From Micrasema longulum (lineage: Eukaryota > Arthropoda > Insecta > Trichoptera > Brachycentridae), in the NCBI GenBank assembly GCA_022494885.1, contig JAGVSM010002840.1, forward strand, positions 186,001 through 250,000: a DNA stretch of 64,000 bases, given 5' to 3'. The notes beneath the pieces were generated by a model. The model searched no databases, was not told the origin of the DNA, and saw nothing but the letters and a program-made list of their open reading frames with translations. Every line of letters starts with the position of its first letter. The stretch's first letter is position 1. This document shows, piece by piece, positions 9,566-58,500 of this stretch. Both the position numbers and the translations under genes were made by a program.

Positions 9566-9813
9566 ATGCCACACGGTCTATCCTGGCATACAATCAGGCG
9601 AGACTTCAACATCTTCATCATAAATGCTGATTAGGATGACCAGACATGACCAGACTTAAGATTTTGGTTTATCTGATCATGCCACGTCTTCCTTGGTCGT
9701 CCTCGTCTAACGTTGCCGTTCATTTTTGCCATATATAGTTGTTTTACCATTCTTTCGTCGTCCATTCGTTCTACGTGACCAAACCATCTCAGAGACCCTT
9801 TCTTAATCTTATT
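9566..9813 (-). pseudogene. RTE fragment, subfamily 1, cut by the RNase H LINE
   Basis: The reverse complement reads the RTE C-terminal blocks CQDR, then GHV/KSR, KTWHDQINQ, and finally IDKIKKGSLRWFGHVERMDDERMVKQ up to 9813, where homology stops abruptly at the start of the RNase H LINE. The apparent coding sequence from ATG 9739 is a chance fusion of antisense RTE with the LINE downstream. Confidence 0.65.
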
Positions 9814-11015
9814 ACTGACATATTGACAAAAAATGACATAAACAAAGACTTTTTAGACCTTAAAATTCAAGAAAGGAAGGAGATTTATAATGTCAAGAAA
9901 TTTGGTAAGCTGTATTCCATTCCAGATGATCGCAAGTATCAAGGAGCTGCAAACTATTTCGATTTACCTCACCCGTGCGAAAGAATTCCCGAAAGTATTC
10001 TTTTACTTGACAAAGATATACCTCCTTACGCTCCCAATGAAATTAGAATCTTTACGGATGGTAGACTGCTCGACGGAAAAGTGGGAGCGGCATTTGTTCC
10101 TTTTGAGAGTGATAAAGAATTACCAGGCAGAACATTTAAATTTGATAATTTCTGCTCAGTTTTTCAGGCTGAACTACTCGCAATACGAGAAGCTCTCGAA
10201 TGGTTATTGAAAAAACCACCAGAGAGATGGGTTATTCCAAAAATATTATCAGATTGTCGTTCGGGCGTTCAAGCTATAACGGATACTCGGTCGGTAAATC
10301 CATTCATTGTAGATATTCAGAGTAAAATTAAGCATCTAAAAATAAGAGGGATGAACATTCAAATATGCTGGATAAGAGGACATGCTGGTATCGTAGGAAA
10401 TGAGAGAGCGGATGAACGAGCAAGAGCCGCAACTTGTAAAAGAACGGCACCTTTCTTCTCAGAATTTCCCCTTAGCTTTGCTAAACGCTGTATAAAACAA
10501 AATACGCAGCAGCGTTGGGAGGATCATTACCGCGCTTCTTCTACAGGTAAAATCACTAAAATGTTTTTCCCAACGCTGGCTGATGCAGCAAACTTCCGTC
10601 ATCATCACCAAAGTCCTTTTGAAACGACCCAAATTTTTACCGGACACGGAGCTATGAGAAGTAATCTATATAGGTTTAAATTAAGGACTGATGACTATTG
10701 TCCATGCGATGATATTTCTTCACAGAGTATCGAACATCTGTTATTTCAGTGCCCATTTTTCAGTTTGCAACGCCATAATCTTGAAGCAGAATGCAAGAAA
10801 GATGGAATATCCTTAACAGATATCCACACTGTAGTTCAAAGAAGTTATCACGCGCCATTGTTCTTGAACTTTGCAACAATGGTGATTGGACTCATAAAGG
10901 TAATAAACCAAAATCAGTGATCGAACATCCCATTTCCAAGACAAACAAAAACGATTTTTTCCGAGTACCTTAGCCTTATACATGACACGTAAGGCTACTA
11001 AATACAGGGGTCCAA
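9814..11015 (+). CDS. LINE ORF2 C-terminus: RNase H domain plus CCHC zinc knuckle (I/R1-type)
   Basis: The frame is open to TGA at 10918-10920. Counting residues from ATG 9739, the RNase H1-like catalytic set is complete: Asp107 (FTDG), Glu145 (FQAELLAI), Asp172 (LSDCRSG) and Asp225 in GNERADE, with His215 in IRGHAGIVGNERAD. A CxC-x9-H-x4-C knuckle (C321, C323, H333, C338) follows, as in the I/R1/Loa group of arthropod LINEs. RNase H would remove the RNA strand during target-primed reverse transcription. The RT and endonuclease are missing by 5' truncation, so the true start is unknown and the first 25 codons belong to antisense RTE. The 3' UTR ends near 11015. A second, decayed copy lies at 33397-33518 and 34650-34925 (minus). 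Confidence 0.85.
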
Positions 11016-13509: not shown

Positions 13510-14080
13510 TTAAAAGATTAAATAAATAAATAAAAATTACCCTTCTTATTTTAAAAAAAATGTCCCTTTAATTTAGCTTATCTACTCTATCTCCCACTTT
13601 CCTTGTCTAATTTTTTTCTAAATATGATATTGAACAAGTGAAAAGTTTTTGAGACAGGTGTATCGAATTAAAATAACCCTCACTTTTGTCAGAGATAAAA
13701 TATAATTCCCTGATGAGTAATTTAAATATTCCTTTACTACTGAGCAGGAGAACAAGAACTGAAATCTTGTTAATTCAAAACTCATAAATTACAAAATAAT
13801 AAAAAAATGTGTTCTGAAATGTTTAGTTTCACAAAGTTTCATATTCCATATTAAAATAACCCGCCGCGCGCCGGTTCGTTCCTGTGATTTAACCGGCGTT
13901 GCAAATTGCAAATGCATTTAATTCATTAATATCTCGGCAACTAAAATAAATATTACAACGAAATTTTTCGAAACTTTCAAGTAAACCTTAAAACATAAGA
14001 CAAAAATAATATCAACCATATAAGTATATTCAATATTTTTTTATGAAATATTTTGTCCATTGAAAATGAGGAAATATCGA
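13510..14080. other. No recognisable gene
   Basis: AT-rich. The short GC-rich run at 13860-13905 (CCGCCGCGCGCCGG) stands out but has no assigned role. Confidence 0.35.
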
Positions 14081-14084
14081 GTAC

Positions 14085-14995
14085 TCTGAGACTTTATTTT
14101 TCTTCAGACTTGTTCTCTCTCCTGCTAGATAAAGGCCTCTTCCAAATGTCTCCATTCCTTCCTATCAACCACTTTTATAATCCATGTTTCACCGGCTATA
14201 GAGGCAATGTCATCGACCCATCTTTTCTGTGGCCTTCCAACTTCCAACACTTCTTGCCCATGATTTATTATTCTGGGTGTCCACCTGTCATTTTTTTGCG
14301 TCGCTAAGTGTTCGGCCCACTCCCATTTTAGTTTTACTGCACGACCCATAATATCCACAACTCCAGTTTAGCGCCTTATTTCTTAATTTCTTATTCTGTG
14401 CCTTAGACATACACCGAGCATCTGTATTTCCATAGATCGTTGAGTGCGTTTTAACTTCTGGCAACTTTTCAGTGTTACATACATGGTTTCTAGCCCGTAT
14501 GTTGTCACTGGCAATATGCACAATTTATCGACTTGTCTTTTTAGCACATTGTGACTTCTTTATTTTTAAAAATGTATTTTAGTTTGCTGAAAGCAGGCCA
14601 ACTAAGCCCTTTTCTTTTTGGTAATCCTGCTGTCTGGTTATCTTTACCGAGTTAGATTTTGTGTCCTTGATATTTGTATTCATCAACCATTTAGATTTTA
14701 CCATTGTCAATGAAAATGTCTCTCCCTGTAGGACTCATAATCTTTGTTTTGTGAATATCCATTTCCAAACCAATCCTTTTTGAAGCCTCGTGTAGTTCCG
14801 TATTCATTTCGCCTAGTTTACCCATGTCTTTACTTGTGACCACTATGTCATCTGCGAATCTGAGGTGATTCAAGTATATGCCGTTAATCTTTACACCCTT
14901 ATTTTCCCAATTCAGGGTTTTAAATACATACTCCAAGACTAGCGTAAAGAGCTTTGACGATATTGTATATCTTTAACTCTGTTGATTTTGACCTG
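14085..14995 (-). pseudogene. RTE-type LINE RT fragment with FADD motif
   Basis: The minus-strand frame 14691-14936 reads VFKTLNWENKGVKINGIYLNHLRFADDIV. FADD at about residue 29 is the RT palm catalytic motif and is followed by the expected ASKRIGLEMDIHKTKIM primer-grip region. After frameshifts, 14125-14358 gives KWEWAEHLATQKNDRWTPRI, then EVGRPQKRWVDDI and DRKEWRHLEEAF, the conserved C-terminal tail. The intervening section is decayed. The order and spacing show a single element. Confidence 0.8.
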
Positions 14996-15002
14996 CTTCT
15001 CG

Positions 15003-16344
15003 CTGTCTAGCGAGTGTCAAGTTCTCAAGTCTTTAAGTTTTTAAATGTTTGTCAGAAAAATTGGTTTTCAACGTATTTATTTGGCCGTCAACAATGCGTT
15101 AAAATGGCAGATGTCTTTTCATATTGGATTGATCTCACCGCTGGTGGGTCACAAGGGGGAATACTTTCTCCACTTTTATTTTTCCTTTTTGTCAATACAA
15201 TAACAAAAAACCTCCCATGTTCGTACCATTTATATGCCGATGATTTGCAATTGTATATTCATTTCGAACCCGTCGACATTGTTGAAACACATAGAGTAAT
15301 GTCACTTGCACTCGAGCATATCTCTTCATCGACAAAAAAACATGGACTTTTCATAAATTCAACAAAAACCCAAATTGTACTTTTTGGTAGTAAAAAATGA
15401 ATTCAAAAGTGAATTTTTCCACACTTCCTCTTTTCAAAATAGATGGTACAGAAATTCCATTCATGACTTCAGTCAAAAACTTAGGTATTATCATTCATAA
15501 GCATTTAGAGTGGCACGATCAGGTTACCGAAGTTGATCGTAAACTTTAAAGCAGTTTGCACTCATTTTCCCAAAAGATTACAGAATTTCTTGCCAATTAA
15601 TGTTAAGCAAACATTAGTCCAGAGCTAACTTCTTCCACTCCTTGACTATGCGAATGTATGTTATCCAGATGCTAACTGTGAATTACTTGATAAGTTAGAA
15701 CGATTGCAGAATGTTTGTATAGGTACGTTATATCTTTGATCTTCGCAAATTCGACCACATAACCGAATATCGCACGCAACTACACTGGCTCAGTATCAGG
15801 CATAGAAGAAACATTCACATTCTATCACTTCTTCACAATATTTTAAATAATCCCACTTCGCCTGTTTATCTGAGAGAGCTCTTCCAACTTCTGTCACAAC
15901 ACGAACTATCTCTTCATTCTAGTAACGAGAGAACCCTTTTAATACCCTTTCATCACTCTATATTTTTGGCCTCCTCTTTCACAATAGTAGCTCGATTGTG
16001 GAATAAACTACCCACTAATGTTAGAGACGCCCCTTCTTTAATTACATTTAAGTCAATATTGAAATGTCACTATCTAAATATTTAAGTTGTTCCTTTATCC
16101 TTCTTTTTTTCTTCCCATCCCCTCTCCTCTCTTCATAGTTTAGTGTTAATTTTCATGTATTTTTATTTTGTTAATCTTTGTTTTTAATATTGTATGAAAT
16201 TGTAAGATTCAATATGTCCATTTACTTGTAATTTTCTCAAACTGAACGGTTTGGGTAGGTAGAAAGAAATTGCCTTAAGGCAATATACCCGCCCTTATAT
16301 GTATATAATTTGCATATGTATGTAAAGTGTAAAATAAATCAATA
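15003..16344 (+). pseudogene. CR1/jockey-like LINE with YADD RT motif and hairpin 3' tail
   Basis: Frame 15014-15400 (128 codons) includes AGGSQGGILSPLLF at about residue 43 and HLYADDLQLY at about 73, RT motifs 4 and 5 with the catalytic YADD. After a stop the reading continues in another frame with VKNLGIIIHKHLEW and, much further on, YLRELFQLL, FTIVARLWNKLPTNVRDAP and a final FKSILKCHYLNI. About 160 bases of UTR carry the stem-loop AAATTGCCTTAAGGCAATA at about 16270 before an AAATAAAT end. Related copies are at 37318-38003 and 45022-45117. A 447-bp repeat has inserted at its very end. Confidence 0.8.
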
Positions 16345-18859: not shown

Positions 18860-19731
18860 TTATGGATAACTTATATAGCGCCATTTTTGTAATAAAATAC
18901 CTCAAAGGCGCTTTACATGGTGATTCTATTGTTAAGTTAATTTAATTGAAGCTTTTAAATTTGTAATTTAATAAAAACAATTCATTTTGTTGTCACGTGC
19001 TACGGATTTATTCAAATGATTTAGAGAACAAGTGGGTTTTAAGTTTTTTTCCGAAACATCATTTCACCTTCACAGCCTCGCACCTCTGCTGGGAGAGCAT
19101 TCCATGCCATAGGGCCTGCGACCGCAAATGCGCGTTCACCAAATTTAGTGCGCTGCTTGCCTAGAGGTATAATAACTTTTCCTCTCGCCGTAGACGTAGC
19201 TGACCTAAGCGTGAGACGCCTGTCAGCTAGTTCATCTGGAATGCATAGTTCCCTTAGATATTCCGGAGCCGAGTTGTGCAGTGACTTATACATAAGCCAA
19301 CAGAGCTTGTATTCGACCCTCTGTGGAAAACGTAGCCAGTGTAGTTCCCGAAGTAGTGGAGTGATATGACTGAACTTAGAGATTCCGAAAATAAGTCTCG
19401 CTGCGGCATTCAATACAGATTGTAGGCGAGTCATTTTGTTCATTGGTAGACCTGCATACCATTACAATAATCGACTCTAGACACTACAAACGCATTTATT
19501 AATTGACGGGCGGCATCAACTGGCAAATTTTTGCGTATGCATTTAATCTGTCTCAGCTGGTAAAAGCATGAACTTATCGTTCTACTAATTTGAGCGTCAA
19601 GAGAAAGGTCAGAATTAAGGAAGACTCCCAGTAGTTTAACGGTGGGTAAAGCGGTACTCCCTACATTAGGTAGAGCCGTATCCTGGATCAAATTCTGTCG
19701 TCTGGCTGAAGCCACCCACAGTTGTTAACTC
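18860..19731 (-). pseudogene. L2-clade LINE, ORF2 C-terminus and 3' tail (copy A)
   Basis: Reading the minus strand from 19715: MASARRQNLIQ, VKLLGVFLNSDLSLDAQI, RQLINAFVVSRVDYCNG, then (frame 19443-19039) RLQSVLNAAARLIFG, HITPLLRELHWLRFPQRVEYKLC, YLRELCIPD and FGERAFAVAGPMAWNALPAEVR. This is the standard C-terminal region of L2 elements. A 4-bp deletion relative to copy B (near 19455) causes the frameshift. The tail GCGCCTTTGAGGTATTTTAT...GGCGCTATATAAGTTATCC lies at 18862-18912. The YADD palm is missing. It abuts a mariner fragment at 19731. Confidence 0.85.
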
Positions 19732-19732
19732 G

Positions 19733-19866
19733 TCGAATTTTTGTTTTGTGTTTCGGAATTGTCTGTGATATATTTGCACACACTTTTTTTTTCGACAACC
19801 CCTAAAGAAAAAAGTCCAGAGGTGTTAGATCACACGATTTTGGTGGCCAGTCAACTTCTCCTCTAT
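19733..19866 (-). pseudogene. Tc1/mariner-like transposase C-terminal fragment
   Basis: The minus strand reads VDWPPKSCDLTPLDFFL, a stop in place of the usual Trp, then GLSKKKVCANISQTIPKHK. The 'WPPRSCDLTPLDFFLWG.VK..VYA..P.TI..LK' pattern is the third-Asp region of mariner-related transposases common in insects. It is squeezed between the L2 copy and a jockey-like LINE. Confidence 0.7.
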
Positions 19867-21689: not shown

Positions 21690-22519
21690 TTATCTTATAT
21701 TTTGTTGACAGTAATGTCTAAACAATGCTTTATTTATTTCGAATTTTATTGTTTACTTTTTAGTAAGAACACTAAACCAATTTTCTACCCAGCTCAATGT
21801 GTATTTTTTTGTAAATTTATTGATATAATTTTAAGCTGCTAGAATTCTACTCGTCGATAAACTTTGTTGCTGCAAGACGATTGGTAATATAGCTTCATTA
21901 TTTATTTATTTGTTTATGCTTTATTAAGTTAGTACGTAACATCTTAAAAACTAATATAAACTTTTATTACCATTCCTATTTTTTTTTAATTTCTCAATGA
22001 CATATATTTTCATATTAATTTTAAATAATTCAGTTCATTTTATATCTTTTGAGGAAACTCATTGTACAGCTTTAATTCATTGTACAATGAATTTTCCGAT
22101 TCTGTTTTTCTGCTCCATACATAAATTTTATTAACTATCAAATACCTGAATTTTGTAAATGGGGTCTAGAATTTCAACCATCCATGCACTCAGTAGCTGC
22201 AAAACTTATTTCAATCCTACTCCTAGTTTTTATATCTATTTTAATGTCATTAAAACACAAAACTTTACGGTCAAATTGAAATATAATGTAAATAGAAGCT
22301 AGATGTTTTAACGCTCAAGCGCTCTGTAGCTGCAAGACGTGCTGTAATCTAGCTCCTATCGGTTGAAATGTGAATAGTCAACATTGAAAACAAGGAGCTA
22401 GAATCCCAATTGTCCATGCGCTCTGTAGCTGTAAGATGTGCTGGGATATTTATTTACTGTACAGGTACAGCGCCCTTAAGGTTATTTTTACAAAAACGGC
22501 GCTATAAAAATTATCAAAC
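21690..22519 (+). mobile_element. Module retroposon with L2-type tail, copy 1
   Basis: Three or four repeats of the module TAGAATYCCAAYCGTCCATG / GCGCTCTGTAGCTGCAAGACG lie at 21838-21880, 22166-22205, 22312-22350 and 22402-22445. They are followed by AGCGCCCTTAAGGTTATTTTTAC...GGCGCTATAAAAATTATC, the L2 LINE 3' end. The 5' part (ATTGTTTACTTTTTAGTAAG...GTAAATTTATTGATAT) matches copies at 34370-34460 and 50670-50775. It is interrupted at 21898-22120 by a LINE tail. No ORF and no tRNA-like head. Confidence 0.8.
21898..22120 (-). pseudogene. LINE C-terminus/tail inserted in the module retroposon
   Basis: Reverse-complement copy of 58270-58495: LYNEFPQ-type remnant, TGTCATTGAGAAATT, AAAAGTTTATATTAGTTTTTAAGATGTTACG and a terminal AAAGCATAAACAAATAAAT. 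The surrounding module sequence resumes at about 22125. Confidence 0.7.
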
Positions 22520-24019: not shown

Positions 24020-24845
24020 ATTTAAAACATATTTGTGTTATTTTCATATTGGAGTTTAGTTGAGGTGATTCTAAACGAAAATATGAAACTAATTATTTAT
24101 AGATGGCGCTTTAATATTTTTCATTGAAAAATGACATTTTTACGTTTATTTTCAATGGAAATTTTACAAAACTTGGTTTGCGGAAACTTTACACAATATT
24201 GATTGTAACAAATACTATAACCGTATAAGTTACGTCCTTTTGTCAAAAGTCAGATTGTTGTTGGTAGTTGTGTAAGGCGGTCTCAGCAATGTTTATCATA
24301 TAACTAATTAAAAAACAAAATAAATATTTTAAAAAGTTTCGTTGCTTTCTCGTCGAACCGACAACAAACTACCCCGAGTTTACAGGGATGTGATCCCGTT
24401 ACCTTATCGTTGGGTAGGTACCACCCGGAAACAACTGTTCTTCGACCAATAATTATTTCACCGCAAAAAATTACCCGAGGAACCCGGAAGAGATGCGAGC
24501 CTTAAATGAAACCAACTGAATTATTGCGTATAGTTCGGCAAGCCTCATTTTTTTGAGCTTCAGAATTCAAAAGACTTTTTATGAAAAATAACGGGAAAGG
24601 TTTTTGTGAAGTCCGGTTATCTGTTATGTGGCAGTAGGGTCTCTATTGTGAAAAGTTTTATAATTTTAACTGTATCTTTACCATCTTTGCTTTTGTTTAT
24701 ATTCAAAACAAAGCGGTATGTTTGTATGCAAATGTTTTTATTATAATCCAAAAATTCATAAATTCTTTTACATAAATTTATTTTGACGCTGCACTGGCGC
24801 TGTTTAACTATGTTTTTTATTTATTTTTTATTATTATTATTATTT
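24020..24845. other. No recognisable gene
   Basis: Includes a GC-richer stretch at 24345-24500 (ACTACCCCGAGTTTACAGGG, then GGTAGGTACCACCCGG) without recognisable function. Confidence 0.3.
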
Positions 24846-25018
24846 TATTTTTTTGCACTACAACAGGCCAGGAGGCCTAATTACAGTGGTGAATTACATC
24901 ACAGAGCACCCAGGCTTGAGAAAAATCACATTTTATTTTTGTGTTCTCACCGGGAATCGAACTCGGAACCTTCCGTGCGTGAGTCAAGCGTCTTGACCAC
25001 TACACCACGGAGGCCGTC
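24846..25018 (-). mobile_element. tRNA-derived SINE (family 2)
   Basis: The minus strand has a TAGTGGTCAAGACGCTTGAC A-box region and a B-box region GGTTCCGAGTTCGATTCCCG, then a body GTGATTTTTCTCAAGCCTGG and the end GGCCTCCTGGCCTGTTGTAG before an A/T-rich tail. A second full copy is at 44526-44716 (plus). Confidence 0.8.
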
Positions 25019-26089: not shown

Positions 26090-26878
26090 ATTATTCTCTA
26101 CCTTCCGTTACAAATACAAGATTTTCTAGATATTCCACCCTGATGCTGCAAAAAAATTAATACAACGTTCGGTCAAAGAGGATTGGCCTACTACTCGGTT
26201 AAAGTATAGAATCTACTTCCATTATCCATAAGGACAATTAGTAAGTTCTCACAATATAAAATTGCTATTAAGAAATGGATAGTGGAGGTGGGTTGCACAC
26301 GAATCGATGAGGATTTTTACAAAACCGGTGCTATATACATTTTCCAAATACATAAATATTTATAAATATATAAAGATCAAACCAAATAGGTAAAATGTGT
26401 GTACTGTTTATGAAATTTGTTCTATTGGTCAATCGTATCTAAATATATTCTAGCAATTCAGTAATGAATCGTCCACATGCGCTGGGTAATAAACATTCGG
26501 ATTTAGGTGACATATTTTTATTGAAATTTCCAGCTTATAAACAATTACTTGTAAAACATTTTAGTGTGGAATCAATATTTTAATTGTGTTCTTTCTAAGT
26601 AAGCATTGAAAAAGTTGTTACTGTATATACTCCACTGTAAATACTTATGTATGTATGTAATGTAAAAGGTACTTGTACCGTTAATTCTTGAAAAAAAAAA
26701 TAAAAAAATAAAATGTAAATTGGTTATGTTTTTTTATGATTATTTTAGTTTTTTTTACTGTTAATTATGTTAATGATAATCTGGTTAATTGGATTATAAA
26801 AGTTTTTTTTATTGTTATGTAAACTTTGTCAAATAGCTGATTTAAGGCATGTTTCATATTTTGTGAAATGTTTCCCTC
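26090..26878 (+). pseudogene. LINE 3' end (family of 47595-48125)
   Basis: Remnant frames give LKYRIYFHYP and YKIAIKKWIVEVGCTRIDE, the terminal 'FK..IKKW' block of a LINE protein. The UTR continues to TTTGTGAAATGTTTCCCTCG at 26878, where a SINE fragment begins. The reverse complement of 47595-48125 shows the same order. Confidence 0.6.
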
Positions 26879-27555: not shown

Positions 27556-28503
27556 TATTATTATTATTATAGATTACTTATGCAGCGCCATTTTCGTAAT
27601 ATAATAGCTCAAGGGCGCTTTACAAAGTGATTATATAAATATATAAATTTAAAAGTGAAGGAAAATAATGTACTTTGTCACCACATGCTAAGGATTTATT
27701 CAAATGATTTAGGGAACAAGTGGGTTTTAAGTTTCTTCCGAAACATCACTTCACACTCATAGTTTTGGACCTCTGTTGGGAGAGCATTCCATGCCGTAGG
27801 GTCTGCGACTGCAAATGCGCGATCGCCGAATTTAGTGCGTTGTTTGCGTAGAAGTACAATAACTTTTCTTTTCAACGTAAATGTAGCTGCTCTAAGCGTA
27901 AGACGTCTGTCAGCCAGTTCATCTGAAATGCAGAGTTCCCTTAGATATTCCGGAGCCGAGTTGTGCAGTGACTTATACATAAGCCAACAGAGTTTGTATT
28001 CGACCCTCTGTGGAAAACGTAGCCAGTGTAGTTCCCGAAGTAGTGGAGTGATATGACTGAACTTAGAGATTCCGAAAATAAGTCTCGCTGCGGCATTTAA
28101 TACAGATTGTAGGCGAGTCATTTTGTTCATTGGTAGACCTGCATAGATACCATTACAATAATCGACTCTGGACACTACAAACGCATTTATTAATTGACGG
28201 GCGGCATCAACTGGCAAAATTTTGCGTATGCATTGAATCTGTCTCAGCTGGCAAAAGCATGAACTTATCGTTCTACTAATTTGAGCGTCAAGAGAAAGGT
28301 CAGAATTAAGGAAGACTCCCGGTAGTTTAACGGTGGGTAAAGCGGTAATCCTTACATCGGGTAGTGCCGTATCCTGAATTAAATTCTGTCGTCTGGCTGA
28401 AGCCATCCATAGTTGTTCTGTTTTAGATTGGTTGACTCTATTTTCAGCCATCCAGTTTCCTATTTTCTCAATGCATCCATTAATCAAATTAACAAGCACA
28501 TTT
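27556..28503 (-). CDS. L2-clade LINE ORF2 C-terminus, longest copy (B)
   Basis: The minus-strand frame 28499-27696 (267 codons) is uninterrupted: INGCIEKIGNWMAENRVNQS and KTEQLWMASARRQ (the segment just after the RT palm), VKLPGVFLNSDLSLDAQISR, INAFVVSRVDYCNGIYAGLP, LQSVLNAAARLIFG, ELHWLRFPQRVEYKLCWLMY, FGDRAFAVADPTAWNALPTE and a final FRKKLKTHLFPKSFE. The catalytic YADD is not included, so the copy is 5'-truncated. The tail at 27565-27628 is GCGCCCTTGAGCTATTATAT...GGCGCTGCATAAGTAATC plus (ATA)n. The shared tail links it to the module retroposons. Confidence 0.85.
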
Positions 28504-28509
28504 CTCTCG

Positions 28510-28885
28510 CTCGGTTTACAACAAAAATAAATAGTGAGACCTTAGCTAATAGTTAGTTTGTCAGATAGGTCAAAATTATTGAGGTAAGCATTTTTACTAT
28601 TCAATATTGCAGTGAAAACACTCCCTTCACATACCCGAAATCCATTTAAAGCCTAAGGGGGTATTTCATCATCTCTTTGTTAACCCTGATTTACAAAATG
28701 TAAGTTAAAAACATCAATGTAAAATGTAATCAAATAGCAGATTTAAATTACATTTACAACCAACCAATTTCACCTTTGAATTTATGCTATATACATACAT
28801 TCGTCTGACAACATATCCGCCGAAAGCACAGACTGCAAAAATCCATGCATTTGTTTTCAAAAATCGTATATCTTTCAACTCTGGA
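28510..28885. other. No recognisable gene
   Basis: AT-rich, no motif found. Confidence 0.35.
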
Positions 28886-31930: not shown

Positions 31931-32099
31931 TTCTTTAAACCCTGTCACATCCGAAACCACGATGATCAGTATAAGCAAGAAGACATATTGGCACATTAAA
32001 ATAAATTTTTAGAACGAATAAAATTATAAAATTGCAGGGGCGTCAAATATGGAATAAAATAGTTTTTATAAATTTATTTAATCTGTTTTATATATATAT

Positions 32100-32190
32100 A
32101 TATATATTTGGATAATTTATATAGCGCCGTTTTTGTGAAAATCACCTCAAGAGGGCGAAATCACCTCAAGGGCGCTGATTCTTTTCTATT
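32100..32190 (-). mobile_element. L2-type tail fragment of a module retroposon
   Basis: (TA)n, GGATAATTTATATAGCGCCG and two copies of AAATCACCTCAAG, a local duplication, ending GGGCGCTGATTC. Extremely 5'-truncated. Confidence 0.65.
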
Positions 32191-32217
32191 TTAGTTCTGT
32201 TTTATATTTTCATGAAA

Positions 32218-32790
32218 ATTGCACTAAGCACAGTAATTGCTCATAAGAATATGTCAATCAAAGCTAAACTGGCAGTGCACAACGGAGTTTTAGTCCAAAC
32301 ACTTATGTATGGAAGTGAAACATAGAACTAGCAGAGGAAGGATGAAAGCCGAGTAAACGCGGTTGAAATGCGAACTCTTAGACGAATGTGTGGGAAATCA
32401 ATGTATGGTAGGGTTACGAATGATGAAAGCAGGCGAGAGTGTTAATCTCAGTCAAGTATAATTGATAAGATTCAGATAGGGTCTCTAAGATGGTTTGATC
32501 ACGTAGAACGAATGGACGACGAAAGAATGGTAAAACAAGTATATATGGCGAAAATGAACGGTAACGGTAGACGAGGACGACCAAGGAAGACGTGGCATGA
32601 TCAGATAAACCAAAATCTTAAGTCTGGTCATGTCAAAAGCAGACAGATCCGAAGGGCATGTATGACAGGATGTATGAATGTAAAAGAAGAAGCTAGGAAC
32701 GTATGCCAGGATAGACGTATGTGGCGGTCCATTCTCTCTGCCTACCTCTACGGGGAAATGGCGTGATGGTAGTAGTAGTAGAAATCTTTT
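32218..32790 (+). pseudogene. RTE fragment, subfamily 1
   Basis: Reads ALSTVIAHKNMSIKAKLAVH, YGSET, RRMCGKSMYGRVTNDE, then frame 32512-32766 with MDDERMVKQVYMAKMNGNGR, GRPRKTWHDQINQNLKSGHV and CQDRRMWRSILSAYLYGEMA. Stops occur upstream (CATAGAACTAG). Ends at GATGGTAGTAGTAGTAG. The last 85 codons are intact. Confidence 0.8.
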
Positions 32791-33510: not shown

Positions 33511-33518
<8 letters not shown>

Positions 33519-33545
<27 letters not shown>

Positions 33546-34649
33546 GATAATTTATATAGCGCCGTTTTTGTGAAAATCACCTCAAGGGCGCTGTACAATA
33601 AATAAATAGCCCACTACGTCTTGTAGCTACAGAGCGCATGGACGGTTGGGATTCTTGTTCCTCGTCTCCAATTATGATATACAAGAGCTAGATTACAGCG
33701 CGTCTTGCAGCTACAGAGCGCATATACAATAAGAAATCTATGCCCTATTTACATTTTTTATTTGATAATAAAGTTTAGAGATTTAGTGAAATTTCAAAAA
33801 AATATATAAAAAAGAAATTTATAAAAATAGAAGTTAGATAACAAGTCTTGCAGCTACTGAGCGCATGGACTGTTGGAATTCTAGACCTCATTTACTAAAT
33901 TTGGATAAATTTGGAATTAGAGCAGAATGCAAGGCTGAGTTAAGCATTATCGACAAAATTAAGAAAGGTCTTTTGCGATGGTTCGGTCATGTGGAGCGAA
34001 TGAATGATGAAAGAACAGCTAAAAAGATTTATGATGCGAATGTGTCTGGTTGTAGAAGTCGAGGAAGGCCGAGAAAGACATGGCATGATCAAGTACAACA
34101 AATTCTTGAAAGTGGTCATGTGAAAAGTCGGAATAATCGACGTGCGTGCATGAGAAGATGTATGAATGTGAAGGAAGCAAAGGAAGTGTGCCAGGACAGA
34201 GTGGTGTGGCGTTCTATCTTCTCTGCCTACCCCTCTGGGGAAATGGCGTGATGGTTAGTTAGTTAGTTAGTTGATGGTTGATAACATTTACCTATTGAAG
34301 CTATAATACTAATCGTCTTGCAGCTACAAAATGCATGGACAAGTGAAATTCTGGTAACTTGAAATTATCAATAAATTTACAAAAACAAACATTAAGCATA
34401 ATAGTAAATTTGTAAAGTGTTCGTGCTAAAAAGTAAACAATAAAAAACTAAACAGATAAAACACTTCAACACTATGGATATCATAACAGATAAAAATATC
34501 CGAAGGGTAGCTTTTGTAGATGTTCGGTAGTCACTAGTCACTGTCGCAGTATCGCACAAGTGCAAACACATGTTGTTTGCTAAATTCCTAGAAGATGGTC
34601 CGGTCCACGTGTAGTTGCCGGAGGGGGGAAAGAACTATTGTTCCAACGA
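33519..34649 (-). mobile_element. Module retroposon, copy 2, near full length with 8-bp target duplication
   Basis: CTTTATAT at 33511-33518 is repeated at 34650-34657, and joining them restores the RNase H LINE. From the 3' side: (TA)n, GGATAATTTATATAGCGCCG...CTCAAGGGCGCTG, then modules at 33620-33660, 33700-33730, 33840-33885 and 34305-34355. A unique 5' head follows to 34649 (reads TCGTTGGAACAATAGTTCTT on the minus strand). An RTE fragment sits at 33907-34275. Without it the element is about 760 bases. The head shows no tRNA- or 5S-like promoter. Confidence 0.75.
33907..34275 (+). pseudogene. RTE fragment, subfamily 2, with (TTAG)n tail
   Basis: An intact frame from about 33910 reads RAECKAELSIIDKIKKGLLR, WFGHVERMNDERTAKKIYDA, GRPRKTWHDQVQQILESGHV, then CQDRVVWRSIFSAYPSGEMA and TGA at 34249-34251. 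It differs from subfamily 1 by AKKIYDANVSG and a tail of TTAGTTAGTTAGTTAG instead of (TAG)n. Inserted in the module retroposon. The ATG at 33865 belongs to module sequence, not to this protein. Confidence 0.8.
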
Positions 34650-35049
34650 CTTTATATCCAATCACCATTGTTGCAAAGTCCAAGAACAATAGCGCGTGAC
34701 AACTACTTTTAACGACAGTGTGGATATCTGTTAAGGATATTCCATCTTTCTTGCATTCTGCTTCAAGATTATGCCGTTGTAAACTGAAAAATAGGCACTA
34801 AAATAACAGATTTTCAATACTCTGTAAAGAAATATCATCGCATGGACGGTAGTCACCATTCCTTAATTTAAACCTATATGGGTAACTTCTCATGGCCCCT
34901 TGTCCGGTAAAAGTTTTACTTAGTCGTTACTTGTACTTAAACGCATATTATTTTCAATTAAACTCACAGTTAATCCTGAAAATGGCTCCTGCAATGGTAG
35001 CCGAAACGCTGGAATAAATCCAACAATCACGGTATCACCTAAAAAAGAA

Positions 35050-37112: not shown

Positions 37113-37213
37113 AATGCGCTCTGTAGCTGCAAGACGTGTTCGGATATTTATTTATTTTACAGCGCCCTTGAGGTAATTTTCACGAAAATAGCGCTATATA
37201 AATTATCCAAACA
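37113..37213 (+). mobile_element. Module retroposon, copy 3 (5'-truncated)
   Basis: One module (AATGCGCTCTGTAGCTGCAA) followed directly by ACAGCGCCCTTGAGGTAATT and AATAGCGCTATATAAATTAT. About 100 bases. Confidence 0.75.
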
Positions 37214-37317: not shown

Positions 37318-38003
37318 TTCACTTGATTCTTTTAATGTCAATGGTACCAATATTTAATACAGGAAATTCGTGAAAAATCTAGGAGTACTAATGGATGAAC
37401 ATCATTGCTTGCGAGCTCATACTAATGAATTAAGCCTCAAAATATATTTCAGTCAACACTAATTTAGAAGGTTGCAAAAATTCTTACCCATTATTACTAA
37501 ATGCACTCTTGTACAATTATTACTACTACCCATTCTAGATTACAATGATGTTTCCATGACTGATTTAAGCTGTGAGCAACTCCATAAACTTGGACGACTT
37601 CAGAGTACATGCATGAGGTACAATTTTGGTCTTAGGAAATATGACCACAAATGGCTCAAAAAATGTTACTACATTATCTCTGTTTAAATCACGTCTGAAG
37701 AAACATCTCCTTTCTCTTCCTTAATCTCTCCTCCTTTCCTTTTTCCTCTTTCCTCTTTTTTCCTTTTTCCCATTGAGTAATAGTTTTTATTTTAGGTAAT
37801 TTATAAAAAAAAACGTTTTTTTTCTATTTTCATACATCTTAAGCTTTTTAATTTTTTTTTTCTATTGAATATGTTCTGTAATTTGAATTATAAAAAAAAA
37901 ACTTTTGTTTTATTGGTTGGTTGGAAGAAATTGCCATTTGGCAATAAGCCCACCAATGTACAAATAACATTCTGTACAAAAAGTTGAATAAATAAAAATA
38001 ATG
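37318..38003 (+). pseudogene. CR1/jockey-like LINE C-terminus with hairpin tail
   Basis: The order FVKNLGVLMDEHHCLRAHTN, FRRLQKFLPIITKCTLVQLL, LPILDYNDVSMTD, LGRLQSTCMRYNFGLRKYDH and, in another frame, TTLSLFKSRLKKHLLSLP matches the family at 15.0-16.3 kb. A deletion removed the section between KYDH and the final FK block. The UTR has the stem-loop GAAATTGCCATTTGGCAATA at 37926-37945 and CCACCAATGTAC before AAATAAAAAT. Confidence 0.75.
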
Positions 38004-38342: not shown

Positions 38343-38735
38343 ATATATATATATAATTTATACAGCGCCATTTTTGTGAAAATCACCACAAGGGCACTGT
38401 ACAATAAATTAATATCCTAGCACGTCTTGCAGCTACAGAGCGCATGGACGATTGGGACTCTAATTCTTTGTCTTTAATTATAATATATTACAATTCTCAT
38501 ATATAGAAACTAGATTGCAGCACGTCTTGCAGCTACAAAGCGCATGGACATTTAGCAATCTAGCCCCTATTTGCATTTATTTTTATTTTATGTGACAACG
38601 AAGTTTAGAGCTTAAGTGATATTTTAAAAAACTAAATAAAAAACAAATTTATTAAAATAGAAGTTAGATTACAACAAGTCTTGCAGCTACTGAGTGCATG
38701 AACGGTTGTAATTCTAGACCAAATATTAAAACATA
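38343..38735 (-). mobile_element. Module retroposon, copy 4
   Basis: (TA)n and ATACAGCGCCATTTTTGTGA, then three modules (38418-38455, 38520-38562, 38685-38722), each with CTTGCAGCTAC. 5'-truncated near 38735. Confidence 0.75.
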
Positions 38736-42979: not shown

Positions 42980-43131
42980 TATTATTATTATTATTATTAT
43001 TATGGATAACTTATATAGCGCCATTTTCGTAAAAAATACCTCAAGGGCGCTTTACATAGTGATTCTTTTAAATTTGTAATTTAATTAAAATAATTTATTT
43101 TGTTGTCACATGCTACTGATTTATTCAAATG
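42949..43131 (-). mobile_element. L2 tail fragment (copy C) with AAT/ATT palindrome
   Basis: About ten (TAA) units at 42949-42978 run directly into about eight (TTA) units to 43003, then GGATAACTTATATAGCGCCA...CTCAAGGGCGCTTTAC, with UTR as in copy A to 43131. No coding part. Confidence 0.75.
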
Positions 43132-43406: not shown

Positions 43407-43892
43407 TATGGATAACTTATACAGCGCCATTTTCGTAATATAATACCTCAAGGGCGCTTTACAAAGTGATAATATAAAGATTTAAATTTAATTTTAACTT
43501 TTTAATTTAAGAAAAATAATGTTCTTTGTCACCCATGCTAAGAATTTATTCAAATGATTTAGAGAACAAGTGGGTTTTAAGTTTCTTCCGAAACATCACT
43601 TCATTCTCACAATTTCGGACCTCTGCTGGGAGAGCATTCCATGCCGTAGGGCCTGCGACCGCAAATACACGTTCGCCGAATTTAGTTCGCTGTTTGCGTA
43701 GAGGTATAATAACTTTACCTTTCAACGTAGATGTAGCTAATCTAAGCGTAAGACGTCTGTTTGCTAGTTCATCTGGAATGCAGAGTTCCCTTAGATATTC
43801 TGGAGCAGAGTTGTGCAGTGACTTATACATAAGCCAACAGAGTTTGTATTCCACCCTCTGTGGAAAACGTAGCCAGTGCAATTCCCGAAGTA
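43407..43892 (-). pseudogene. L2-clade LINE, ORF2 C-terminus (copy D)
   Basis: The minus-strand frame 43881-43546 reads LRFPQRVEYKLCWLMYKSLH, APEYLRELCIPDELANRRLT, FGERVFAVAGPTAWNALPAE and FRKKLKTHLFSKSFE, closely matching copies A and B. The tail is at 43408-43470. Truncated at 43892 and joined to a scrap of module retroposon (43886-43950). Confidence 0.8.
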
Positions 43893-43960
43893 GTTCCTTG
43901 TTTCCAATTATAATTTAATTTAATAACCGATAATAATTGAAGCTAGACTTCATCATACAT

Positions 43961-44420
43961 ATTTTTTTTGTATACCGCCATTTTTGTAAAAAATCACTTT
44001 AAGGGCGCTTTACAATTCTATATCTAAACTTACACTATAACTAAACTTAAGTGATATATTATATTTCCAAATTTCAAATTGAGGGTATGATAGTTTAAAG
44101 AAGTGGGATTTTAGTTGGGATCTGAACTAACTGGAACTGTCGATGATTCGTAACTTTGAAGGCAATTGGTTCCAGGCAGAGGGGCCGGCGGCGGCAAAAG
44201 CACGATCTCCAAATCAAGTGTTTGAGAAGTGCCGGATTTCGACAAGTTTTCTTCTTCCTGAATCAAATGCTGACCTAAGAGTAGATTTTCTTTGACACGT
44301 ATTTTCCCTAATACAAAGGTCCGATAGGCATTTTGGAGCCATTTCATGAAGGGATTTGAATACTGTCCAGCACAGCTTGAATTTTATTCTCTCTGGGCTT
44401 TTTAACCAGTGTAAATTTGT
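43961..44420 (-). pseudogene. Diverged L2-like LINE C-terminus (copy E)
   Basis: The true frame reads NLHWLKSPERIKFKLCWTVF, then KSLHEMAPKCLSDLC, LRSAFDSGRRKL, a stop, FGDRAFAAAGPSAWNQLPSK, another stop and FRSQLKSHFF. This is the same domain as copies A-D but a different subfamily. The longest open frame here (44111-44347) is in the wrong phase. The tail at 43970-44015 has CCGCCATTTTTGTAAAAAAT...AAGGGCGCTTTAC. Confidence 0.75.
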
Positions 44421-44480
44421 GCCTTTGAGGTATTATATTACGAAAATGGCGCTATGTAAGTTATCCAAAATTATTATTAT
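44421..44480 (+). mobile_element. L2 3' tail only
   Basis: GCCTTTGAGGTATTATATTA, then GAAAATGGCGCTATGTAAGT and TATCC plus (ATT)n, in opposite orientation to the adjoining copy E. Confidence 0.65.
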
Positions 44481-44482
44481 TA

Positions 44483-44810
44483 TAAGGAACTTGAATCTCA
44501 ACCGTGAATGCGCTATGTAGCTGTTGGCGGCCTCCTCGGCGGGGGTGTAGTGGTCAAGACGCTTGACTCACAGACGGAAGGTTCCGGGTTCAATTCCCGG
44601 TGAGAACACAAAAATTAAAATGTGATTTTTCTCAAGCCTGGGTGTTCTGTGATGTAATTCACCGCTGTATTTGGGCCTCCTGGCCTGTTGTGGTGCAAAA
44701 ATAAAATAAAAAAATAAAACGTGTTGGAATACTAATTGTACAGCACCCTTGAAGTGATTTCACAAAAATGGCGCTAAAAAATCATCCACAATGATAATAA
44801 CAATAATAAT
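44483..44810 (+). mobile_element. Module retroposon, copy 7, interrupted by a SINE
   Basis: One module (TGAATCTCAACCGTGAATGC / GCTATGTAGCTGT) is cut at 44525 and resumes at 44717 with ACGTGTTGGAATACTAATTG and CAGCACCCTTGAAGTGATTT...GGCGCTAAAAAATCATCC. Confidence 0.7.
44526..44716 (+). mobile_element. tRNA-derived SINE (family 2), complete
   Basis: A-box region GTAGTGGTCAAGACGCTTGA, B-box region GGTTCCGGGTTCAATTCCCG, body GTGATTTTTCTCAAGCCTGG, end GGCCTCCTGGCCTGTTGTGG plus AAAATAAAATAAAAAAATAA. The inverted mate is at 24846-25018. Confidence 0.85.
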
Positions 44811-45413: not shown

Positions 45414-46035
45414 CCATCACGCCGTTTTTCCGTAAGGGTAGGCAGATATGATAGAACGCCACATCACTCTAGTTTTGCATACAGATCTCGCTTCTTCTAC
45501 ATTCATAAATCTTCTCATGCACGCGCGCCTATTATTCCGACTTCCGACATGCCCATCTTCAAGTATTTGTTGGATTTGGTCATGCCATGTCTTCCTTGGT
45601 CTACCTCTATTTCTGCATCCATCAACATTCGCATTGTAAATATTCTTAGCCGTTCTTTCGCTGTCCATTCGTTCTACATGTCCAAACCAGCGCAGAGCTC
45701 CTTTCTTGATTTTGTCGATAATGCTTGTCTCAGCCTTACATAAGGTACTGATCTCAACATTTGTGCATCTATCGTACATAGTTTTACCACACATTCGCCT
45801 GAGAGAACGCATCTCGACAGCATTCAGCCTACTTTCATCCCTGTTTTTCCAACTTCATACTTCGATCCCATACATCAGGGTCGGGACCAGGACTCCGTTG
45901 TGAACTGCTAATTTTGCCTCTTGCGACAAACATTTATTTGCCAAGGTTGATTTAAGTGCTCCGTTCACTCTGTTCCCAGCACTCACCCTCCTTTCAATAT
46001 CTTTCACAGTCATTCCATCCCTAGTAAACATATAA
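45414..46035 (-). pseudogene. RTE fragment, subfamily 2
   Basis: The minus-strand frame 45812-45417 is open for 131 codons: MRSLRRMCGKTMYDRCTNVE, KAETSIIDKIKKGALRWFGH, VERMDSERTAKNIYNANVDG, GRPRKTWHDQIQQILEDGHV and VMWRSIISAYPYGKTA. Upstream, decayed frames to about 46035 carry RDGMTVKDIERRVSAGNRVN and EAKLAVHNGVLVPTLMYG. Only the post-RT part of the element remains. Confidence 0.8.
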
Positions 46036-49515: not shown

Positions 49516-49915
49516 AGTTGGATAATGAATACAGCGCCATTTTTGTAAAAATCACCTTAAAGACACTGTACAGTAAATAAATATCCCAGCACGTCTTGCA
49601 GCTACAGATCGAAAGGATGATTGGGATTCTAGTTCCTTCTTTTCAATTATGATATATTTAAATTAAAACAGATAGGAGCTAGATTACAGCACGTCTTGCA
49701 GCTACACCATGCATGGACGGTGAGTAATCTAGCCCCCATTTACATTATGTTTTAATTTTACAATGTAGTATAATTTTTGAATAATATTAAATTTAAATAA
49801 AATATTTTAAAAACTCATTTTTAAATATAGGCGTTAGATTATAATAAGTCTTGCAGCTACTGAGCGCATGGACTATGGAAATTCTAGACACCGTTTGCAA
49901 AATTGATGTATTTTG
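49516..49915 (-). mobile_element. Module retroposon, copy 5
   Basis: GGATAATGAATACAGCGCCA...CTTAAAGACACTGTACAG, then modules at 49590-49625, 49690-49725 and 49848-49885, each with CTTGCAGCTAC. 5'-truncated at about 49915. Confidence 0.75.
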
Positions 49916-50480: not shown

Positions 50481-50669
50481 AATCTCTGTGGGCAACAGCA
50501 CATATTTATATTTGCTACCAGTGTGTAAGTCAAGAAGCGTGCATAGTCTACACACGTCCGTTTCCAGAAATTCTCCAGCAGCCTAGTGGACCACATGGTG
50601 ACGATATCTACCTACTGTCTACAAAAGATTCTCTTCATACATCTATCTCCCTTTGTTAACCATAGAGTT

Positions 50670-51110
50670 GATACAGTGCTTTATTTATTTAGTTTTTTAT
50701 TGCTTAGTTCTTGGCATGAACTCTTGACAAACTTACTACTATGCTCTATTTTTTATAAATTTATTGATATCATTCTAACTTTGCTAGAATTCCACTCGTC
50801 CATGCGCTTTGTAGCTGCACGATGATTGGTTATCTAGCTTTCATATACCAACTTAAAAATACCTCAATTTTATAAATGGGGTCTAGAATTCCAATCGTCT
50901 ATGCGCTCTGTAGCTGCAAGACGTCCTGTAATCTAGCTCCTATCTGTTATAATTATTTTTTGATCTTAATTGAAAACGAGAAACTAGAATCCCAACCGTC
51001 CATGCGCTCTGTAGCTGCAAGACGTACTGGGATATTTATTAATTGTACAGCGCCCTTGAGGTGATTTTCACAAAAATGGCGCTATATAAATTATCCAACT
51101 ATATATATAT
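50670..51110 (+). mobile_element. Module retroposon, copy 6
   Basis: The 5' part (TGCTTTATTTATTTAGTTTT, AAATTTATTGATATCATTCT) is followed by modules at 50782-50822, 50882-50925 and 50988-51030, then TACAGCGCCCTTGAGGTGAT, AAATGGCGCTATATAAATTA and TCC plus (TA)n. A clean reference copy, though its own 5' end is not delimited. Confidence 0.8.
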
Positions 51111-55869: not shown

Positions 55870-56420
55870 AATATTAAATTCAATATTTTACTGTTCCGAA
55901 CAGTAAAAATTAATTAACTTGCGAGTGCCCGGCCGGATTATTCAATTTAATAAACTCTTCTATATAAATGTATCTATAACTAACTACAGTGCACACTCGC
56001 CTATAAAAAGAATTCATGTGTTTGCAAATGAATTCGCAAATGTGTAGATATATTTAATCCAACACTTTTGAATATTAAAAGTGTTTCAATTTATTATCTC
56101 AAAATTTAAATACCTAAATAATATTTTGTATGTTGTTATTTATAGTATACCTTTTATTAGCTTATATCTGTATTCATAATTATTATTTTTCTACATTCTT
56201 CTAATTTAAAGATTGTTTTAATATAACCGATTGGAAACAATGAACATCTGTTCTCTCTACTGGATTATATGTGTGTTTTTATATTTTTATTTTCTTTTAT
56301 TAAGGAAACATACAGTACAGTTATAGAGTTTTATATATATATATATATTACACAGTTAGACTTAACTCTATTGGACCAGTGAAGTTTCCATATTATAAAG
56401 TAATTAAGGGGAAGTGAGGT
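55870..56420. other. No recognisable gene
   Basis: AT-rich, no motif found. Confidence 0.3.
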
Positions 56421-56423
56421 TAC

Positions 56424-57113
56424 TGACTGCAAAATAAATGTAAACGACGAATGTCTCGAGCAAGTAGAAGAATTTGTGTATCTGGGAAGCGTGTTTTCAA
56501 GAGATGGAAGAGTAGAAAAAGATGTTGAAAGAAGAGTGAATGCGGGCAACAAAATGAACGAAGCACTAAACACAGTAATTGATAATAAAAATAAGTCAAT
56601 GGAAGCTAAACTGGCAGTGCACAACGAAGTTTTAGTCCCAACACTTGTGTATGGAAGTGAAACATGGAACTGGCAGAAGAAGGATGAAAGCCGAGTGAAC
56701 GCGGTTGAAATTCGATCTCTTAGACGAATGTGTGCGAAATCAATGTATGACAGGGTTACGAATGATGAAATCATGCGAGAGTGTAAATCTGAGTCATGTA
56801 TAATTGATAAGATTATGAAAAGGTCTCTGAGATGGTTTGGTCACGTAGAACAAATGGACGACGAAAGAATGGTAAAACAAGTATATATGGCGGAAACGTG
56901 AGACGAGGACGACCAGGGAAGACGTGGCATGCTCAGATAAACCAAAATCTTAAGTCTGTTCATGTCAAAAGCAGACAGAATCGAAGGGCATGTATGACAA
57001 GATGTATGAATGTGAAAGAATCTAGGAATGTATGCCAGGATAGACGTGTGTGGCGGTCCATTCTCTCTGCCTATCCCTACGGGGAAATGGCGTGATAGTA
57101 GTAGTAGTAGTAG
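56424..57113 (+). pseudogene. RTE-clade LINE, subfamily 1, longest copy
   Basis: Open from about 56440 (LEQVEEFVYLGSVFSRDGRV) through NAGNKMNEALNTVIDN, KLAVHNEVLVPTLVYGSETW, RVNAVEIRSLRRMCAKSMYD and LRWFGHVEQMDDERMVKQVY to 56901. A short deletion then shifts the frame, and 56880-57095 gives VRRGRPGKTWHAQINQNLKS, CQDRRVWRSILSAYPYGEMA and stop. The (TAG)n tail is at 57097-57113. The endonuclease and RT catalytic domains are absent. Best reference for the seven or more other copies in the window. Confidence 0.85.
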
Positions 57114-57929: not shown

Positions 57930-58500
57930 TCATTCATGCTTTTTTGTGTAATGAAGGAGAAATTAAAAATATACAAATTCTTCAAAATAAGGCAATGAGG
58001 ATTATATTCAAAAGAAATATCTATTATTATGTAGAAATAATGCACAAAAAAATTCGCTTGCTCACAGTAAAGCAGCAAATTAAATATAATGTAGCAATTT
58101 TTATGCATAAAATAATTAATTGGATGAATAAAATAAAAACAATAATAACATTTAACCAACAATATCATACACTTTGTTAAGCGCCCTTGAGGTATTATAT
58201 TACGAAATGGCACTATATAAGTTATCCATAATAATAATAATATAAAACAAGGGATAAAAAAAGATAAGATTACCAATGAGGAGAAAAACAGAATCTCAAA
58301 ACTCATTGTACAAGGGATTGAAGCTGTACAATGAGTTACCTTAAGAAATAAAGGATAAAGAAAATATCGAAATATTTCAAATTAATTTGAAAAAATATGT
58401 TATTGAGAAATTTTGATAAAAAAATTGTAATGTTATTAAAAGTTTATATTTGTTCTTAAGATGTTATGAACTAACTTTAGAAAGCATAAATAAATACTAG
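57930..58500 (+). pseudogene. LINE C-terminus (EIKNIQILQNKAMR), split by an L2 tail
   Basis: 57945-58160 encodes NEGEIKNIQILQNKAMRIIF, RLLTVKQQIKYNVAIFMHKI; after the insert, 58245-58415 encodes LYNELP-KEIKDKENIEIFQI and LKKYVIEKF. This is the LINE terminal domain. The UTR (AAAAGTTTATATTTGTTCTT, AAGATGTTATGAAC) ends in AAAGCATAAATAAATA. The tail recurs inverted at 21898-22120. Confidence 0.7.
58161..58240 (+). mobile_element. Minimal L2 tail insertion (about 80 bp)
   Basis: CACTTTGTTAAGCGCCCTTG, GGTATTATATTACGAAATGG and CACTATATAAGTTATCC, then (ATA)n, inside the LINE frame. No module or coding sequence. Confidence 0.7.

What the first reader, a model, noticed from the sequence alone, without database searches (positions are those of the whole stretch)
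33519..34649. Non-autonomous retroposon built of repeated GCAAGACG modules with an L2 LINE tail
Seven copies or parts in the window (21690-22519, 33519-34649, 37113-37213, 38343-38735, 44483-44810, 49516-49915, 50670-51110) share three or four internal repeats of a module with GCGCTCTGTAGCTGCAAGACG (given here as one motif of about 21 positions, core TAGCTGCAAGACG), then the 3' end GCGCCCTTGAGGT...GGCGCTATATAA.TTATCC. The same 3' end closes the L2 LINEs at 18860, 27556 and 43407. Known biology: SINEs borrow their partner LINE's tail. The head has no tRNA-, 5S- or 7SL-like promoter that I can see, so its origin and transcription are open. A modular internal-repeat SINE of this kind may be undescribed.
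Basis: partly seen in the sequence, partly recalled or inferred. Interest (0 to 1): 0.75.

Follow-up and report, generated by a model that had tools for sequence, protein, structure and literature searches.

The report
Hairpin-array retroposon with LINE tail
This eukaryotic genome carries a small repeated element made of up to four related hairpin-like units, ending in a tail shared with a larger L2-type jumping element that probably copies it.

Summary
A repeat family has eight copies in the window (the seven listed plus a tail-only copy at 32094-32195). It is a 5' head, an ordered array of up to four modules, and a ~47-bp 3' end like that of the L2-type LINEs. Copy B (33517-34649) has an empty paralogous site and a 6-bp target duplication; the tail-only copy has a 12-bp one. 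So it is a retroposed unit, not a satellite. Each of 16 modules is nearest to one of the same position: the array was fixed in the founder; copy G has lost one unit by fusion of m2 and m3. Modules are probably hairpins. Between positions the 28-nt core is kept (23/28) while arms diverge (10/32), and arms pair best with their own partner (rank 1 of 24). Against this: covariation is not above shuffles, and the opposite strand folds more stably in 12 of 17. No module was found above five L2-type tails, and a strict Pol III B box is lacking. Best reading: a non-autonomous, L2-mobilised retroposon. The rival, the 3' end of an unseen L2 LINE, is not excluded; the genome search did not complete.

The parts
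33517..34649 (-). Copy B: head, modules m1-m4, L2-type tail, (AT)n; nested LINE fragment at about 33927-34260
   Evidence: empty paralogous site within 10870-10920; ATAAAG at 34650-34655 and 33511-33516
33545..33591 (-). L2-type 3' tail of copy B
34314..34341 (-). inner core of module m1, copy B
33844..33871 (-). inner core of module m2, copy B
33701..33728 (-). inner core of module m3, copy B
33617..33644 (-). inner core of module m4, copy B
21701..22519 (+). Copy A: part of head (5' edge uncertain), m1-m4, tail; nested insert about 21907-22115
37114..37213 (+). Copy C: truncated inside m4, plus tail
38343..38722 (-). Copy D: m2-m4 and tail
44483..44810 (+). Copy E: m4 and tail, m4 split by a tRNA-like SINE (about 44518-44717)
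49516..49915 (-). Copy F: m2-m4 and tail
50618..51110 (+). Copy G: part of head, m1, fused m2/m3, m4, tail
32094..32195 (-). Tail-only copy, not in the finding, with a partial extra tail at its 5' side and a 12-bp target duplication (32082-32093, 32196-32207)

Best explanation
It is a non-autonomous retroposon family that borrows a LINE tail. Its RNA ends in a stem-loop that an L2-clade ORF2 protein accepts as template, so it is reverse-transcribed at a nicked target and often truncated at the 5' side. Its body is an ordered array of four diverged copies of a unit with inverted arms (GG.CTAGA / TCTAG.CC) around a kept 28-nt core (CGTCCATGCGCTCTGTAGCTGCAAGACG) that can itself form a hairpin. 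The core is probably kept for binding a protein of the host or the L2, or for stabilising the RNA. Shown: repeat anatomy, fixed order, tail sharing, two target duplications. Inferred: use by L2, the hairpins and their role, and that the family has no ORF.
For: Empty site and 6-bp duplication for B, 12-bp duplication for the tail-only copy. L2-like tail in 8 of 8 copies. Same-position module nearest in 16 of 16 (G's fused module, C and E left out). Core 23/28 against arms 10/32 identical between the four position consensuses (Fisher p 8e-5, columns taken as independent). Own-type arm pairing ranks 1 of 24. The three modules and the tail of copy G fold as hairpins in its whole RNA. No core within 12 substitutions in the 600 bp above five L2-type tails, and no module by model elsewhere. 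No L2-like coding in any of the 8 copies on its own strand: matches of 120 L2-related proteins lie elsewhere. Longest stop-to-stop frame 80 aa in B and 68 aa in G, B's insert removed. Binding of the cognate tail stem-loop by L2-type ORF2 is published for zebrafish LINEs (PMC4176376, abstract read).
Against: Covariation does not exceed shuffles. Mean fold z is -1.6, with 7 of 17 modules above -1, and the complementary strand folds more stably in 12 of 17. At least three of the four loop-stem pairs checked appear in 10 of 17 folds, at least three of CGTC/GACG in 10, five or more arm pairs in 12. In whole copy D, m2 and m3 fold so but m4 is drawn otherwise. Rank 1 of 24 is p about 0.04 on related modules. 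Only one copy has the outermost head. The exact partner L2 is not identified.
Confidence: 0.6

Rival explanations
1. The element is the long 3' UTR, or an internal-deletion derivative, of an L2-clade LINE subfamily with no ORF-bearing copy in this window; the copies are 5'-truncated LINEs.
For: 5' ends are scattered as in truncated LINEs; the tails form a slightly distinct set, so the exact partner is unseen; no strict B box. Cetartiodactyl 'SINEs' proved to be LINE fragments (PMC2996970 section 14).
Against: Four L2-type ends have 70-96 bp from stop to tail and a fifth has L2-like coding to about 40 bp from its tail; none has a module. B carries about 730 bp above the tail with no long frame and no L2-like match on its strand. 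These L2s may not be the partner.
Confidence: 0.3
2. The modules are DNA elements, such as repeated promoter or protein-binding monomers, rather than RNA hairpins; the inverted arms are incidental or act as DNA. This can hold together with the best explanation.
For: Core kept by sequence; covariation not above shuffles; opposite strand folds more stably in 12 of 17. The parallel with mouse L1 promoter monomers is recalled, not tested.
Against: Arms pair better with their own partner than with others; the three modules of copy G fold in its whole RNA. Modules sit next to the 3' tail.
Confidence: 0.3
3. A tandem repeat, satellite or DNA transposon with a chance L2 tail.
For: Internal repeats.
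Against: Fixed module order across dispersed copies, target duplications at two copies, tail at the 3' end of 8 of 8 copies.
Confidence: 0.03

Closest known systems
EhSINE1 of Entamoeba histolytica (PMC2996970: passages seen and section 14 read)
   Same: Non-autonomous, shares only its 3' end with its LINE, one to four internal repeats in some members, no known small-RNA parent, only limited likeness to Pol III boxes
   Different: Repeats 26-27 nt, against units of about 100 bp or more here; partner EhLINE1, shared 3' end about 70 bp, not an L2 tail
Tail-sharing SINE/LINE pairs of the CR1/L2 group, e.g. UnaSINE/UnaL2, HAmo SINE/HAmoL2, Nve-Nin-DC-SINE-1/L2-22_NV (PMC3747384, passages and part of a table)
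   Same: L2- or CR1-type LINE tail on a non-autonomous element
   Different: The L2-paired entries in the part seen are listed as tRNA-derived; no such head was recognised here, and the body is a module array
L2-type LINEs in this window (18864, 27572, 43409, 43967)
   Same: 3' end of about 47 bp
   Different: No modules and L2-like coding close to the tail
SVA and other VNTR composites (PMC4432496, search listing and start of abstract only)
   Same: Composite retroposon with internal repeats
   Different: L1-driven with a poly(A) tail and many similar VNTR units (recalled); here up to four diverged, ordered modules and an L2-type tail

Membership tests
SINE (tail-sharing type) | 3' end shared with a LINE of the same genome | tested here: met
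SINE (tail-sharing type) | Head from tRNA, 5S or 7SL RNA | tested here: inconclusive
   No match at Rfam threshold or by ARAGORN, sub-threshold hits only in G and B; both tools also missed the window's tRNA-like SINEs, and the head may be incomplete
SINE (tail-sharing type) | Internal Pol III promoter (A and B boxes) | tested here: not met
   GGTTCGANTCC with up to 2 mismatches in 0 of 7 stretches from copies A, B, D, F, G and in 2 of 2 tRNA-SINE controls. A looser 9-base B-box pattern with 1 mismatch did match once in B's head, once in A and twice in B's nested insert. A-box matches do not tell elements from controls
SINE (tail-sharing type) | No ORF; non-autonomous | tested here: inconclusive
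   No frame above 80 aa in B or 68 aa in G, no L2-like match in the copies on their own strand, but full length is unknown
SINE (tail-sharing type) | Target duplications | tested here: met
   Two of eight copies: B 6 bp, tail-only copy 12 bp. Short shared words at A, E, F may be chance; none found at C, D, G
L2-clade LINE | ORF2 upstream of the 3' UTR | tested here: not met
   No match of 120 L2-related proteins inside the copies on their own strand; heads of A, B, G full of stops
EhSINE-like internal-repeat SINE | Variable number of internal repeats | tested here: met
   4 in A and B, 3 in G by fusion; shorter copies are truncated
Structured RNA | Compensatory base changes beyond chance | tested here: inconclusive
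   Shuffles reach the observed covariation; arm-swap test rank 1 of 24

The most novel reading that the evidence does not exclude
A Pol III-independent class of animal-type retroposon whose body is an ordered array of co-evolving RNA hairpins with a kept core, a docking array for a host or L2 protein, joined to an L2 recognition tail.
Probability: 0.22. Interest if true: 0.65.

Novelty: new variant of a known kind. Interest (0 to 1): 0.4.

Why it matters
If the family has no ORF, it would show that L2 machinery can be used by an RNA with no evident Pol III-gene parent, and would offer a natural series of repeated units for asking what such a body adds to retroposition. It would be an L2-driven counterpart of EhSINE1, whose parent is unknown and for which SINE or LINE fragment is debated.

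Tried and rejected
Genome-wide copies: the genome search on the window's own assembly was sent 12 times and never answered. Viral contigs: four patterns and one L2 protein (two pattern stretches, none confirmed) gave nothing. Prokaryote genome contigs: 11 records with one exact match each to a 20-base pattern, taken as chance because the titles are of unrelated bacteria and one archaeon; not opened. Rfam at relaxed threshold gave only far sub-threshold hits (PreQ1, IsrM). An idea that modules mimic the L2 tail hairpin was dropped by eye. Paper searches; no L2-tailed module-array retroposon was seen in those listings, which is not proof of absence in print; Repbase and Dfam are not on hand.

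Full report
What is there. TAGCTGCAAGACG occurs 18 times with up to two mismatches, 0.46 expected. Self-comparison (output cut at 14,000 characters) shows the seven listed copies and an eighth, tail-only copy at 32094-32195. Written 5' to 3', the element is: head; modules m1, m2, m3, m4; an L2-type 3' end; often an (AT)n run. A and B carry four modules, D and F carry m2-m4, E and C only m4 or part of it, G carries m1, a fused m2/m3 and m4. Nested inserts interrupt A, B and E.

It is a retroposed unit. Copy B lies in a copy of an RNase H-bearing LINE (Pfam) whose relative at 9739-10930 has the empty site. The tail-only copy has ATATAAAACAGA on both sides. Its tail agrees with that of B over 63 of 63 bases, partly AT run, so these two may be younger than the rest. 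No duplication was found for C, D or G, and short shared words at A, E and F may be chance.

The tail. Element and L2-type 3' ends align over about 47 bp. The sets overlap: 0.876 within elements, 0.899 within L2-type tails, 0.854 between, with the L2 at 18864 at 0.885 to the elements. The L2-type end at 43967-44013 has an element-like GTGATTTT. Body identity among A, B, D, F is 0.80-0.85; three L2 copies are 0.89-0.91 alike, so these four element copies look older.

Modules. Without G's fused module and those of C and E, each of 16 modules is nearest to one of the same position: the array was set up before these copies spread. G's middle module matches m2 best on its left (0.82) and m3 best on its right (0.92). 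I read this as loss of one unit by recombination or template switching; the reverse, an ancestral three-module form, is not excluded. The 17-module model found those 17, C's, and two weak antisense echoes.

Structure. The drawn hairpin has outer arms GG.CTAGA / TCTAG.CC, then CGTC/GACG, TGC/GCA, GCT/AGC and a four-base loop. Single 60-nt folds keep at least three of four loop-stem pairs in 10 of 17, at least three of CGTC/GACG in 10 of 17, and five or more arm pairs in 12 of 17. Mean z against dinucleotide shuffles is -1.6, with strong cases (G1 -4.8, D3 -4.5, F3 -3.7, G4 -3.1) and 7 of 17 above -1; the opposite strand is more stable in 12 of 17. Between the position consensuses the core is identical at 23 of 28 columns and the arms at 10 of 32 (p 8e-5). 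With a fixed core, each left-arm type with its own right-arm type gives the best of 24 assignments. Column covariation was not above shuffles on either alignment. In whole copy G all three modules and the tail fold as drawn; in whole copy D m4 does not. RNA hairpins are likely, not proven.

Promoter and coding. No Rfam family reached threshold in the window and ARAGORN found no tRNA; both also passed over the two tRNA-like SINEs, so they prove little. A strict B box with up to two mismatches was found in 2 of 2 tRNA-SINE controls and 0 of 7 element stretches; a looser pattern matched once in B's head and once in A. The longest frame is 80 aa in B and 68 aa in G. L2-like coding (120 proteins against the window) lies at 14954-16109 and 37319-37675 (+) and at 18951-19829, 27612-28640, 43537-43914 and 44052-44594 (-); none falls in a copy on that copy's strand (the last, as merged, runs under copy E on the opposite strand). 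Five L2-type tails have no module core in the 600 bp above them. Four of the five have 70-96 bp from stop to tail; one of these four, at 43003, shows no coding match.

Reading. The anatomy fits a non-autonomous element copied through an L2-type tail. Recognition of the tail stem-loop by ORF2 is published for two zebrafish LINEs (PMC4176376, abstract), and tail sharing between SINEs and LINEs, CR1-group ones above all, is widespread (PMC3747384, passages). EhSINE1 is the nearest precedent in design, and its authors faced the same question of SINE or LINE fragment (PMC2996970, section 14). That question stays open here because no genome-wide search was answered.

Noticed in passing
24831-25006 (-) and 44544-44717 (+): Two copies, 92% alike over 177 columns, of a tRNA-like SINE with a near-consensus B box; the second splits the module of copy E. 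Rfam and ARAGORN did not report either.
   Followed up: partly
32094-32195 (-): The tail-only copy begins with a partial extra copy of the tail, as template jumping or restart during reverse transcription would give.
   Followed up: partly
26312-26372 (+): Tail-like stretch 85% like the tail of copy B over 61 columns; possible further tail-only copy.
   Followed up: no
58181-58227 (+), 44421-44468 (+): L2-type ends cut off close to the tail itself; the second stands directly before copy E, inside L2-like coding on the other strand.
   Followed up: no
37319-37675 (+): Weak L2-like coding match (E 4e-8) just downstream of copy C.
   Followed up: no
32446-32766, 33838-34251, 45417-45854, 56404-57099: Several copies of the C-terminal end of another LINE (FGHVERM); one fragment is nested in copy B.
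   Followed up: partly
9739-10930 (+): LINE 3' part with an RNase H domain (Pfam E 4e-11); a relative of it is the target of copy B.
   Followed up: partly
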